Notes under the pieces: model-generated
Database searches by the model: none
Told to the model about the DNA's origin: nothing
Seen by the model: only the letters and a program-made list of their open reading frames with translations
Program-made: the position numbers and the translations under genes
Source of the DNA: Fontisphaera persica
GTDB lineage: Bacteria > Verrucomicrobiota > Verrucomicrobiia > Limisphaerales > Fontisphaeraceae
Assembly (NCBI RefSeq): GCF_024832785.1
Contig: NZ_CP116615.1
Location: 3,658,001-3,722,000, forward strand
DNA: 64,000 nucleotides
Direction: 5' to 3'
Shown: positions 49,485 through 53,482 of the stretch, one piece after another
Layout of the letters: each line of letters begins with the position of its first letter
Numbering within the stretch: the stretch's first letter is position 1

Positions 49485-49745
49485 TTACCCCGGCGTCTCA
49501 CTCGGCCCGGCTGCCCTGCGGCGGCGGTTGGGCAGGGCGTCGCCTGTGTATTGGGGACGCCAGCCCTTGAGGGTGGGATAGCTGAAGCCGATCTCGGCGG
49601 CGACCTGGGTGCCGGGCTTGCCACTGCGGAGCCAATGCTCCGTGGCCTGCCGCTTGAAGGCGTCGTCGTAGCGTTTGGCTTAGGGGTGGGGTCTGGCCGC
49701 CGCCGGGGCGGTTTCCTGTGTTTCGTCGGGTTTGCCTTTTTTCAT
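49485..49745 (-). pseudogene. IS3-family transposase orfA remnant
   Basis: On the minus strand from ATG 49745, the frame reads MKKGKPDETQETAPAAARPH, then meets an in-frame TAA at 49680-49682. It goes on in the same frame with KRYDDAFKRQATEHWLRSG and KPGTQVAAEIGFSYPTLKGW, a clear IS3/IS911-type OrfA helix-turn-helix. Homology stops after QYTGDA and the frame ends at 49485. The orfB catalytic gene is absent. This is a dead fragment at the left side of the AT-rich restriction-modification island. Confidence 0.85.
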
Positions 49746-50080: not shown

Positions 50081-51232
50081 ATGCAAATCCAAGAGGCACT
50101 GAAATTAGGTATTTGGGCGCAAGACACCGCTATAGCGGAGAATCCCGATTACCTTACGCGGCAGCTAATTACGTATATTGGCAACAAGCGGGCCTTGCTT
50201 GGAGAAATTTCTAATGCAGTTGTGCGAATTAAGAGGCGACTAGGTAAGCAAAAACTTGCTTGCTTCGACGTTTTCAGCGGATCTGGTGTCGTTTCGCGCT
50301 ATCTAAAAGCGCATTCGTCTCGCCTTATCTCTAATGACTTGGAAGATTACGCACGCGTAATCGGTCGATGCTTTCTTGCAAATCGAAGCAGTGTGGACAT
50401 GTTCTTGTTAGAAGACATCGTGAAGGATCTTAATGCTAGGGTCTTAGATGCACCATTTCCCAAAGGATTTATTGAAGAGATGTACGCCCCCCGTGATGAG
50501 TTAAATATTACGAAAGAGGACCGTGTGTTCTACACCCAAAACAATGCTCGGCGGTTAGACAACTACCGAAGGCTAATTAATGAGATACCAGAATATTTAC
50601 ATGATTTCCTTTTAGCTCCACTTTTAAGTGAAGCCTCTATACACGCAAACACCGCTGGAGTCTTCAAAGGATTCTACAAAAATCGTATCACTAGGGTAGG
50701 TCAATTTGGGGGAAGTGGTCGAGACGCTCTTCGGCGCATCATGGGTGAGATCATTCTGGAGACTCCGGTCTTGAGTAATTTCGAGTGTGAAGTTGAAGTG
50801 CTGCAAGAAGATGCAAATAAAGCAGTGAGGAGTATTCGTGGGCTTGATTTAGCGTATTTGGACCCTCCATACAACCAGCATCCATATGGCTCCAATTATT
50901 TCATGCTTAATCTGATTGTTCATTACAAAAGACCTGTACATGTCAGCAAAGTATCAGGGATACCGATTAACTGGCGAAGGTCCCGCTACAACGTCAAAGA
51001 AGAGGCGCCAAAGGTTTTTACAGATCTTGTCGAACATTTAGATGCCGCCTTCCTGTTAGTATCATTTAACGATGAAGGGTTTATCAGTCCCACAGAGATG
51101 TTCAAGATTCTTGGGGCTTTTGGAAAAGTCGAGACTATTCATATTAGATACAACGCCTTCCGCGGAAGTCGAAGCTTTGCGAATCGTTCTCTTCATACAA
51201 CAGAGCATTTGTATATAGTAGAAAGGAGATAA
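50081..51232 (+). CDS. D12-class adenine-specific DNA methyltransferase
   Basis: The 383-residue protein carries the motifs of N6-adenine methyltransferases of the D12 (alpha) class in order. These are YIGNKRALL (residues 32-40), the SAM-binding loop FDVFSGSGVVSRY (about 62-74), and the catalytic AYLDPPYNQHPYG (about 258-270). An intervening target-recognition region runs from about 100 to 245. It should methylate the site cut by the endonuclease encoded six bases downstream, protecting host DNA. Codon use is AT-rich, unlike the neighbours, which points to recent transfer. It is longer than Dam (about 280 residues). Target site is not readable from this protein. Confidence 0.93.
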   Translation: MQIQEALKLGIWAQDTAIAENPDYLTRQLITYIGNKRALLGEISNAVVRIKRRLGKQKLACFDVFSGSGVVSRYLKAHSSRLISNDLEDYARVIGRCFLANRSSVDMFLLEDIVKDLNARVLDAPFPKGFIEEMYAPRDELNITKEDRVFYTQNNARRLDNYRRLINEIPEYLHDFLLAPLLSEASIHANTAGVFKGFYKNRITRVGQFGGSGRDALRRIMGEIILETPVLSNFECEVEVLQEDANKAVRSIRGLDLAYLDPPYNQHPYGSNYFMLNLIVHYKRPVHVSKVSGIPINWRRSRYNVKEEAPKVFTDLVEHLDAAFLLVSFNDEGFISPTEMFKILGAFGKVETIHIRYNAFRGSRSFANRSLHTTEHLYIVERR

Positions 51233-51238
51233 CTGCCT

Positions 51239-51955
51239 ATGTCTCGCAAACATCAACTTCGGACAGATCGGGAAACTAAGTCCCCAATTATCAATGTTAC
51301 TTCTAAACAACAAGAAACCGCTCTTTATATAGCACTGAGCAAAGTTGTCAACCAACTAAATACTAAATTTGGCGATAAAATATCGCTGAAACATCAAAGC
51401 CAGTGGTATCTCAAAGATATTGTAACCGAACTTAAATCTAGCTTTCCTAAAGTGGAGTTTCACGACCGTTTCAAAAACAGTTCTATTCGCCCAGACGGCG
51501 GCATCCTCTACCTAGAAGGAAAGCCTGACGATAAATTTATCTATCCAATTCTTATCGCTGAAGTAAAGAACCAAGGCACCAACGACCAGCGGCTGAAAGA
51601 AGGAAAGCCCGAACAAGCAAAAGGAAATGCGATCGAACGTTTGGGGAAGAACCTTATTGGCTTGCGTACGGCGCTATTGCGAGAGTGCATCTTCCCTTTC
51701 GTATGTTTCGGATATGGTTGTGATTTTGCACAAGGTTCGTCAATTTTAGACCGCGTTAGAACAATGGCCATGTTCGGGGTGCTTAATCAGACCAGGTTAT
51801 ACGATGAGGAAAATGGTAAGTTTAAGAGGGGAAGCTTCTATTTTAGAGAAGAAGAGTGGCAAGTTGACGAAATGGCTAAAATTATGTATAAGATTGCCGA
51901 GTGTTCAGTGTACTACTACTTCTCCAAGTATTCGGAATCACATTTTATAAAATAG
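51239..51955 (+). CDS. EcoRI-family type II restriction endonuclease
   Basis: The 238-residue protein shows an EcoRI-like core. SSIRPDGGILYL holds the PD..(D/E)xK aspartate (Asp86), and PILIAEVKNQG supplies Glu108 and Lys110. The match to EcoRI segments NSSIKPDGGI and VAEAKHQG is direct from recall of that sequence. GNAIER (residues 129-134) followed by KN matches the GNAxER motif that in EcoRI and MunI contacts the inner AATT bases. I infer a recognition site with an AATT centre. It is AT-rich, lies six bases after the methyltransferase gene and is shorter than EcoRI (277 residues). Confidence 0.92.
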   Translation: MSRKHQLRTDRETKSPIINVTSKQQETALYIALSKVVNQLNTKFGDKISLKHQSQWYLKDIVTELKSSFPKVEFHDRFKNSSIRPDGGILYLEGKPDDKFIYPILIAEVKNQGTNDQRLKEGKPEQAKGNAIERLGKNLIGLRTALLRECIFPFVCFGYGCDFAQGSSILDRVRTMAMFGVLNQTRLYDEENGKFKRGSFYFREEEWQVDEMAKIMYKIAECSVYYYFSKYSESHFIK

Positions 51956-52216: not shown

Positions 52217-53482
52217 TCACTCACCGCTACTGCCCTGCGGCGGCGGTTGGGCGGGGGCCGCGCTCCGCATTTGCAGGAGGGACTCCGCAAACGCCCGGCC
52301 CATCAGGGCAAAGGTCTTGGCGCAGCCGAGGTAGTGATAGCCAGCATTGGAAGCGCCGCGTTTCCACAGCGCCGCCTCGGCGGGGCTGATGAGCTCGGAC
52401 TCGTATTTCTTCATGAACTCCCGCTTCTGCTCCTCGGTCATGCTGCCGTCCGCATTGGCGTAGTCCTTGTGTTTCGAGTCCAGGAAATAACGCATCTGCC
52501 GCACCTTCTCGTGCTTCTTGTCAATCGCCCCCAGCTCCTCGCTCCAAAAGGGCGCCGTTTCCACCGCCACCACATTGCCCTGAAACTCCGGCAGCCGCGC
52601 CGGCGCCGCCATGGCCAGGCGAAATTCCCGCATGGTCGCGCTGGCCTGCTTGCCGTCCACCCCCATCACACCAATCACAAACGGCAGCTTGGGCGCGCCG
52701 AGGTCTTTGCGCACATCGCGAATGAAATGCGCCAGCACCTCGCTGTAAGCCGCGTAACCGCCGGGCTTGTTGCGCTCGGGATAAACGTCCCCGTCCACCA
52801 TGTCATTCCAGCCCTGCAGCCACACAAAACCGGCCAGCTCGTAACCTTGCGCCGCATCGTAGTCCGGCACCACGCGCCCGGGGTTGGCGAGCACCTTTTT
52901 GACATGCTCCATCATCAGCCGGTAATACACGCCGGTCTCGGACGCCTTTTTCGCTTTCTCCGCGGCAAGGTCCCGGCCGCGCCGGGCCAGATTGGCAAGC
53001 TGCGTCTCATTGAATACATACGGCCCCGCGCTGGGCGGGCGAAAATCGGTATGCAAACTCTTGCCGCCCCAGGCGGTCTTGATGAGCAGCACCGGCTGGT
53101 CCAGCGCCGCGTCCAGCGTCAACCCAAAGGTGAATTCCGGCCCAATTTTGCGGCCGGGTTTGCCGGTGTTACGGCCGTCCAGCGAGCCAAAGCCGGCCGT
53201 CAGCCTGCCGGTCAGCTCAAAGTTCTGGCCGCCTCCGCCGGTGAGATAAGAAATCCAAACGCGCTCGCAGACGCGCGGCGTGCCGTCGGCGTTCCGCATT
53301 TGCCTCAACAACGGCGCCGTGGCCGGGTCATCGCCGATATAATCAAACGTCTCTATGCGGGCGTGTCCCTCCATGTTCGACTGGCCCGCGAGAATGAAGA
53401 CCAGCAGCGGTTTCTTTGCCGCCGCCAGCGCCGGCCCACTCCAGAGCGCGGCCAGGAGCACCAAACAGGTTATGGGTTTCAT
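52217..53482 (-). CDS. Secreted SGNH carbohydrate esterase (sialate O-acetylesterase-like)
   Basis: The 421-residue protein, started at ATG 53482 (a TTG lies six bases upstream), has a signal peptide (MKPITCLVLLAALWSGPALA). It belongs to the SGNH esterase group near sialate O-acetylesterase: FILAGQSNMEGHARIE holds the catalytic serine (Ser35), LIKTAWGGKSLHTDF and WLQGWNDMVDGDVYPE supply the other blocks, and NAGYHYLGCAKTFALMG supplies the histidine. It probably removes acetyl groups from glycans outside the cell. Its last codons fall in a roughly 35-bp segment also found at 49499-49533. Confidence 0.86.
   Translation of the reverse strand: MKPITCLVLLAALWSGPALAAAKKPLLVFILAGQSNMEGHARIETFDYIGDDPATAPLLRQMRNADGTPRVCERVWISYLTGGGGQNFELTGRLTAGFGSLDGRNTGKPGRKIGPEFTFGLTLDAALDQPVLLIKTAWGGKSLHTDFRPPSAGPYVFNETQLANLARRGRDLAAEKAKKASETGVYYRLMMEHVKKVLANPGRVVPDYDAAQGYELAGFVWLQGWNDMVDGDVYPERNKPGGYAAYSEVLAHFIRDVRKDLGAPKLPFVIGVMGVDGKQASATMREFRLAMAAPARLPEFQGNVVAVETAPFWSEELGAIDKKHEKVRQMRYFLDSKHKDYANADGSMTEEQKREFMKKYESELISPAEAALWKRGASNAGYHYLGCAKTFALMGRAFAESLLQMRSAAPAQPPPQGSSGE

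What the first reader, a model, noticed from the sequence alone, without database searches (positions are those of the whole stretch)
50081..51955. EcoRI-family restriction-modification pair with a predicted AATT-centred target
The endonuclease has the PD..ExK residues Asp86, Glu108 and Lys110 and a GNAIER motif at 129-134, which in EcoRI and MunI contacts the inner AATT. It is paired with a D12-class methyltransferase carrying DPPY, unlike EcoRI's own methylase type as I recall it. This suggests a re-paired system with GAATTC, CAATTG or a related site.
Basis: partly seen in the sequence, partly recalled or inferred. Interest (0 to 1): 0.75.

Follow-up and report, generated by a model that had tools for sequence, protein, structure and literature searches.

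The report
EcoRI-like restriction-modification pair, probably RAATTY-specific
A bacterium carries a two-gene DNA immune system related to the famous enzyme EcoRI, and comparison with relatives, including phage versions whose own genomes lack the site, suggests which DNA word it cuts.

Summary
The pair is real: 50081-51232 encodes a D12 adenine methyltransferase and 51239-51955 an EcoRI-family endonuclease (Pfam 9.1e-15; best fold match EcoRI, Z 15.3). It is not a one-off re-pairing: short EcoRI relatives sit beside D12-type methyltransferases in 15 loci, window included, while 6 long EcoRI relatives have other types. Two findings sharpen the target to RAATTY. (1) The closest endonuclease (L020, 72%) is coupled to a different methyltransferase, 52% identical to the A. 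baumannii enzyme that I take for AamA, whose reported motifs are GAATTC and TTTRAATTYAAA. (2) Eight phage contigs with a solo endonuclease of this kind and no methyltransferase seen hold 0 RAATTY in 111.7 kb (about 223 expected); 12 related phage loci without it hold 229 in 129.5 kb. One fragment, L041, goes against this, and the eight are close kin. The window system is an ordinary type II R-M system of an EcoRI subtype with a predicted ApoI-like target. More novel is the side finding: a phage restriction enzyme apparently tolerated by purging its sites. No activity was measured.

The parts
50081..51232 (+). D12-class (alpha order: FSGSG 65-69, then DPPY 261-264) adenine DNA methyltransferase, 383 aa
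   Evidence: Pfam MethyltransfD12 7.5e-19, PADLOC MTase_II PDLC03257 1.3e-112; motif positions
50273..50287 (+). methyltransferase motif I FSGSG (residues 65-69)
50861..50872 (+). methyltransferase catalytic motif DPPY (residues 261-264)
51239..51955 (+). EcoRI-family type II endonuclease, short form, 238 aa
   Evidence: Pfam EcoRI 9.1e-15, PADLOC REase_II 1.5e-16, PDB EcoRI 3.8e-9, fold match to EcoRI Z 15.3
51494..51568 (+). PD-ExK active site: D86, E108, K110 (EcoRI D91, E111, K113)
   Evidence: alignments; invariant also in the solo phage relatives aligned
51614..51640 (+). recognition segment QAKGNAIER, residues 126-134: EcoRI N141, A142, E144, R145 kept; EcoRI M137 is Q126 here
   Evidence: roles of EcoRI residues from passages of PMC4081073, PMC11755562, PMC3806743
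51740..51754 (+). SILDR, residues 168-172, aligned with NRLDR/NRIDR of long EcoRI relatives (I169 at the place of R200)
   Evidence: the number R200 is placed by inference
49491..49679 (-). fragment of a transposase (HTH_Tnp_1) left of the R-M pair
   Evidence: Pfam PF01527 7.9e-6, over its cut-off; two related copies elsewhere in the genome
49498..49537 (.). left copy of an imperfect (85%) 40-nt direct repeat (22-nt exact core 49512-49533), inside the transposase fragment
   Evidence: the 22-mer, with up to 2 mismatches allowed, occurs only twice in the 4.73-Mb genome
52217..52256 (.). right copy of the direct repeat (22-nt exact core 52231-52252), at the 3' end of a SASA-esterase gene

Best explanation
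A type II restriction-modification system, probably horizontally acquired. The D12 methyltransferase, encoded first, makes N6-methyladenine in an AATT-centred palindrome of the host; the EcoRI-fold endonuclease, presumably a homodimer, cuts the same site when unmethylated, probably leaving 5' AATT ends as EcoRI does. The core AATT is read by the conserved GNAIER segment. The outer base pair is read more loosely than in EcoRI, most likely as purine/pyrimidine, so the target is probably RAATTY (GAATTC included). Shown by sequence: both families, the catalytic residues, the recurring pairing, the methyltransferase swap in L020, and the absence of RAATTY from phage contigs with solo relatives. Inferred: activity, cleavage position, exact target and defence role.
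For: Family assignments and fold (five EcoRI entries Z 14.5-15.3, next 9.5). A D12-type partner in 15 of 15 short-form loci, leaving aside the 8 solo phage loci and L041, which is cut by its contig end. L020: REase 72% identical and grouped with the window (98/96), MTase 37% identical to the window's but 52% to the L030 enzyme that I take for AamA, and grouped with it (98/99); the two ORFs overlap on one contig. AamA motifs: GAATTC in vitro, TTTRAATTYAAA by SMRT. In the MTase tree the window type and AamA type are sisters (85/97), apart from the 12 other D12 enzymes put in, among them FokI-, AlwI- and putative Tsp509I-type ones. Solo phage nucleases share N111, T114, N115, Q126, S168 and I169 with the window, fall on its side of the split from long EcoRI (100/99), and their contigs lack RAATTY.
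Against: No activity or methylome data. The window REase is only 35-42% identical to the solo phage nucleases over 113-159 aa, and three recognition positions differ: EcoRI A138, A139 and A142 are A, K, A here and S, M, G in the solo phages, so the outer-base preference could differ. L041, a 4.1-kb contig with a partial nuclease 67% identical to the phage type, has 18 RAATTY. The solo phages are close kin, perhaps one event. The host genome sample shows no special RAATTY avoidance (0.84 of expected, against 0.78 for YAATTR), as expected if methylated, so it does not help. AamA's exact motif is disputed: the NAR 2023 passages found no specific GAATTC methylation, and that L030 is AamA is my inference from its neighbours.
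Confidence: 0.68

Rival explanations
1. Same type II system, but strictly GAATTC-specific, an EcoRI isoschizomer with a D12 methyltransferase.
For: EcoRI homology; A127 and A131 match EcoRI A138 and A142, unlike the solo phage enzymes, and the A138T change is reported to raise cutting at AAATTC, so alanine there fits a strict G; AamA methylates GAATTC in vitro.
Against: EcoRI M137 and R200, reported to matter for recognition and guanine contact, are Q126 and I169 here, as in the solo nucleases linked to RAATTY. AamA by SMRT also methylates sites holding AAATTT and AAATTC.
Confidence: 0.17
2. AATT tetranucleotide specificity (as recalled for Tsp509I and MluCI) or another outer base pair such as CAATTG.
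For: The inner determinants alone would give AATT; a Thermus phage D12 enzyme is labelled putative M.Tsp509I by its depositors.
Against: YAATTR and mixed sites persist in the solo phages (213 and 439 in 111.7 kb); CAATTG and TAATTA remain present. The labelled Tsp509I-type MTase falls outside the window/AamA group, on a long branch.
Confidence: 0.1
3. The absence of RAATTY in the phages reflects a host restriction system and says nothing about their nuclease.
For: The nuclease-bearing contigs are close kin (neighbouring protein 69-100% identical), so the association may be a single event; GATC is absent or rare in phages with and without the nuclease, so site loss from other causes does happen here; L041 keeps RAATTY.
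Against: RAATTY, the one degenerate palindrome of those tested that should be frequent and is wholly lost (0 against 53.7 by Markov model), has the AATT core that an EcoRI-type enzyme reads; the 12 relatives without the nuclease keep it; nuclease dN/dS is 0.10-0.28.
Confidence: 0.25
4. A decayed or inactive pair.
For: It sits beside a transposase fragment, and a relative in L003 has a broken or partial REase.
Against: Both ORFs are full length with the catalytic residues, and the C-terminus aligns to the end with L002, L020 and L029.
Confidence: 0.07

Closest known systems
EcoRI (and isoschizomers such as RsrI and LraI), Pfam PF02963
   Same: PD-ExK residues, GNAIER segment, overall fold
   Different: 238 aa instead of about 277; an insertion of the long forms is missing; M137 to Q, H114 to N, R200 to I by alignment; partner MTase of another class; predicted RAATTY rather than GAATTC
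AamA, orphan D12 methyltransferase of Acinetobacter baumannii (GAATTC / TTTRAATTYAAA)
   Same: D12 class, 32% identical over 386 aa, sister group in the MTase tree; an AamA-type enzyme replaces the window type in L020
   Different: orphan, with no endonuclease among the annotated neighbours in L030; longer protein. L030 is taken for AamA from its neighbours
EcoRI-family pair on Paracoccus marcusii plasmid pCP157_17 (RefSeq annotation)
   Same: same gene order and both protein types (53% and 47% identical)
   Different: annotated without specificity
ApoI (RAATTY) and C. jejuni M.CjeNI / Cj0208 (RAATTY)
   Same: the predicted target, as given in passages of PMC5608340 and PMC4889913
   Different: their sequences were not compared, so homology was not tested

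Membership tests
EcoRI endonuclease family (PF02963) | Pfam EcoRI model over its gathering score | tested here: met
   54.9 bits against 22
EcoRI endonuclease family (PF02963) | PD-ExK catalytic residues and GNAIER segment | tested here: met
EcoRI endonuclease family (PF02963) | EcoRI-like fold | tested here: met
   VIA-align Z 14.5-15.3 to five EcoRI entries, next Z 9.5; the model is only moderate, pLDDT 66.8
EcoRI isoschizomers (GAATTC) | EcoRI residues M137 and R200 (reported for recognition and guanine contact) | tested here: not met
   Q126 and I169 by alignment; the R200 number is placed by inference
EcoRI isoschizomers (GAATTC) | cleavage at GAATTC only | not testable with these tools
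   needs enzyme
D12 (alpha) adenine methyltransferases | Pfam MethyltransfD12 over cut-off | tested here: met
   68.9 bits against 22
D12 (alpha) adenine methyltransferases | motif I (FxGxG) before DPPY with a long segment between | tested here: met
   FSGSG 65-69, DPPY 261-264
MunI/MfeI (CAATTG) enzymes | similarity to MunI | tested here: inconclusive
   MunI not among the rows shown
Type II R-M system | adjacent MTase and REase of one specificity | tested here: inconclusive
   adjacency met in the window and relatives; shared specificity inferred only

The most novel reading that the evidence does not exclude
The short EcoRI subfamily is RAATTY-specific and exists in two forms: with a methyltransferase in bacteria and some phages, and as a solo weapon in a phage lineage that replaced methylation by complete loss of RAATTY from its own genome. 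There the enzyme would cut host or rival DNA while the phage is immune because it has no sites.
Probability: 0.55. Interest if true: 0.75.

Novelty: new variant of a known kind. Interest (0 to 1): 0.55.

Why it matters
It shows how a restriction enzyme's target can be predicted without biochemistry, by joining a natural methyltransferase swap with a site purge in phages that carry the enzyme alone. It adds a compact, differently partnered branch to the textbook EcoRI family, useful for asking how the outer base pair is read. If the solo phage enzymes act as proposed, phages can carry a restriction enzyme with no antidote by deleting its sites, a form of self-immunity that could be looked for in other phages by the same word-count test.

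Tried and rejected
Own-genome avoidance: 464 kb (20 sampled stretches of 20 kb plus the window, of 4.73 Mb) gave RAATTY 365 against 433 expected and YAATTR 243 against 311; no signal.

Phage records: no match at E 1e-3 to the window REase or to the solo phage nuclease in the 50,697 phage records, so no isolate in that collection carries a recognisable one. PDB: the MTase has no match better than E 1.1.

Structure: AlphaFold from 9 rows gave pLDDT 66.8, about 58-61 in the blocks that hold GNAIER, too weak to place it against DNA. The viral-library fold search was not run.

Methyltransferase in the solo phages: the motif [DNS]PP[YFW] was sought in all ORFs of 80 aa or more of L043-L047, L052 and L053, that is 4 of the 8 nuclease-bearing contigs and one close relative (none); blastp or tblastn with the window MTase and AamA covered L034-L042 and the 20 loci, none in any solo locus. 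The contigs are fragments, so one elsewhere is possible.

A further scan with the solo nucleases found the same contigs again and no new one.

Literature: searches on RAATTY/EcoRI/phage, solitary phage REases and site avoidance listed no paper that I recognised as being on phage EcoRI-type nucleases with site purge; only 12 of 325 papers were listed. PMC4176335 (passages) reports 12 solitary REases in 831 phages, so solitary phage REases as such are known. Only the open library was searched; REBASE was not available.

A first reading of the left flank used the wrong frame; corrected. A first dN/dS run was misaligned; corrected. Both trees carry long-branch warnings (REase: L032, L033 and L005; MTase: L109), so deep placements are unsure.

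Full report
Observation. The upstream gene (50081-51232) is a D12 methyltransferase (Pfam 7.5e-19; PADLOC MTase_II 1.3e-112) and the downstream one (51239-51955) an EcoRI-family endonuclease (Pfam 9.1e-15; PADLOC REase_II 1.5e-16). phmmer finds EcoRI in the PDB at 3.8e-9. D86, E108, K110 and GNAIER 129-134 are as stated. A predicted model (pLDDT 66.8, pTM 0.68) has five EcoRI entries as its best fold matches, Z 14.5-15.3, the next being SgrAI at 9.5. The GNAIER stretch itself is modelled with low confidence, so I do not claim that it faces DNA.

Setting. From about 50101 to 51900 the GC is 0.38-0.47 in 200-base steps, in a window of 0.63, so the pair is probably horizontally acquired. Left of it lies a transposase fragment (49491-49679, minus strand; PF01527 7.9e-6; two related copies elsewhere in the genome). 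An imperfect 40-nt direct repeat flanks the locus 2719 nt apart; its 22-nt exact core, sought with up to 2 mismatches, occurs only at these two places in the 4.73-Mb genome. This would fit the long target duplications described for R-M insertions (PMC3031569, passages), but the repeat is GC-rich and simple, and no empty site was examined, so it is a suggestion.

Relatives. Short-form endonucleases (46-72% identical to the window; in L003 only a C-terminal piece is in frame) were found in a genome-contig scan (L002 Acidobacteria and L003 Candidatus Poribacteria), on a Paracoccus marcusii plasmid (L004), in 8 of 387 genomes searched in the phylum, besides the window's own (L020-L027; the other two of the 11 matching genomes have long EcoRI relatives), and in 3 viral contigs (L029, L032, L033). 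All 14, plus the window, have a relative of the window's D12 MTase next to the REase (blastp 5e-62 or better; in L033 it is on the opposite strand). The Pfam D12 model itself was run on the window and L020 enzymes (and on L030). In contrast, the 6 long EcoRI relatives examined (4 of the 17 weaker plasmid records, and 2 genomes) have EcoRI_methylase (5) or N6_N4_Mtase (1) partners.

Methyltransferase swap. L020 (genome G074) has the REase closest to the window, 72% identical, yet its MTase is only 37% identical to the window's and 52% identical to an A. baumannii MTase (L030). I take L030 to be AamA because it lies near nrdR and a DNA polymerase III chi gene (that chi is holC is recalled), and the AamA paper names holC and nrdR as neighbours of its MTase genes (PMC10483419, passages); the ATCC 17978 sequence itself was not compared. 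In trees, the L020 REase groups with the window (98/96) while its MTase groups with L030 (98/99). The two ORFs overlap on one contig, so a binning error is unlikely. Since an MTase must protect the sites that its partner cuts, the REase target should lie within what an AamA-type enzyme methylates. AamA was reported to methylate GAATTC in vitro and TTTRAATTYAAA sites by SMRT (PMC10483419, abstract and passages); another paper found TTTRAATTNA and TNTNAATTNAAA partly methylated and not GAATTC specifically (PMC10287943, passages). All have an AATT core. The window-type and AamA-type MTases are sisters in a 28-row tree (85/97), apart from 12 other D12 enzymes that I chose from the hits, among them ones next to FokI-type and AlwI-type REases and one labelled putative M.Tsp509I; support is moderate.

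Recognition residues. EcoRI's N141, A142, E144 and R145 are kept in the window. EcoRI M137 and H114 are Q126 and N111, and the place of R200 (reported to contact guanine; PMC11755562, passages) holds I169; this number was placed by me from the RxxR spacing. Q126 and I169 are shared by the short forms aligned wherever that part of the protein is present; N111 too, except S in L026. The solo phage enzymes differ from the window at EcoRI A138, A139 and A142 (S, M, G instead of A, K, A).

Phage solo enzymes. Of 12 viral loci found with the REase alignment, 3 are the pairs above, 8 carry an EcoRI-type nuclease (ORFs of 225-238 aa; one, L042, cut by its contig end) without a recognisable MTase, and 1 (L041) is a truncated gene. 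The 8 solo loci have 0 RAATTY, with 7-18 YAATTR and 14-33 mixed sites each. On longer stretches, 84 kb of four contigs had 0 RAATTY against 53.7 by a maximal-order Markov model; the six other degenerate palindromes of that test with no occurrence had 1.4 or fewer expected, though GATC, CCGG, GGCC and CGCG are scarce as such. Over all 8 contigs (111,724 bases; 83 bases of G389 unread) there were 0 RAATTY, 213 YAATTR, 194 RAATTR and 245 YAATTY; independence of the flanks would give about 223. As a control I fetched 20 loci by a neighbouring phage protein: 6 are nuclease-bearing (0 RAATTY each), 2 are close kin whose contigs end before the nuclease position (0 RAATTY in the 17.9 kb read), and 12 are more distant kin (42-56% in that protein) without the nuclease, with 229 RAATTY in 129,548 bases (254 by the same formula). 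Six of those 12 cover the nuclease position (142 RAATTY in 80,648 bases), and two of the contigs are long, 75.6 and 104 kb, with no nuclease match anywhere. GATC, by contrast, is missing or rare in phages with and without the nuclease, so its loss has another cause. The nuclease evolves under purifying selection (pairwise dN/dS 0.10-0.28 among four copies). Two phage contigs with an MTase beside the REase are not depleted in the 40 kb read of each (G391 37 against 37.8; G392 181 against 201.6). G389 is phage: DNA polymerase, helicases and ligase match PHROGs.

Limits of the phage argument. The nuclease-bearing contigs are close kin (neighbouring protein 69-100% identical), so this may be one evolutionary event; a host R-M system could be the cause; the contigs are fragments; and L041, with a partial nuclease 67% identical to the phage type, has 18 RAATTY in 4.1 kb, which I cannot explain except by an unseen MTase, a young acquisition or another target.

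Conclusion. The window encodes a type II R-M pair of a short EcoRI subfamily with a D12 partner; the target is AATT-centred and most likely RAATTY. The same pairing is already annotated, without specificity, on a Paracoccus plasmid, so the system is a variant of a known kind. The apparent purge of sites in phages that carry the enzyme alone is the more novel observation.

Noticed in passing
L034-L040, L042 (IMG/VR contigs); stretches L043-L047: Phages with a solo EcoRI-type nuclease and no RAATTY site in 111.7 kb; the 12 relatives fetched without the nuclease keep the site.
   Followed up: yes
L041: Truncated nuclease of the solo phage type (67% identical) in a 4.1-kb contig that has 18 RAATTY: a counter-example.
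   Followed up: partly
L052-L071: GATC is absent or rare in many of these phages whether or not they carry the nuclease, and present at about 3-4 per kb in five others.
   Followed up: no
own genome, 464 kb sampled (L079-L098 and window): GATC at 0.25 of expected and GTATAC at 1 against 18.3 expected: avoidance of two palindromes in the host genome sample.
   Followed up: no
L003:3896-6609: In a Poribacteria MAG the pair, with a broken or partial REase, lies between genes that I read as NADH dehydrogenase subunits, next to another putative methyltransferase ORF with NPPY.
   Followed up: no
L040:4573-4827: A ribosomal protein S21 gene (Pfam 7.8e-11) lies just beside the phage solo nuclease.
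   Followed up: no
L102, L104: Plasmids of Bartonella and Psychrobacter carry two adjacent different D12-like methyltransferases followed by a large hypothetical protein, perhaps another R-M type.
   Followed up: no
window 49498-49537 and 52217-52256: Imperfect 40-nt direct repeat around the R-M pair; its exact 22-mer is found only at these two places in the genome, a possible insertion footprint.
   Followed up: partly
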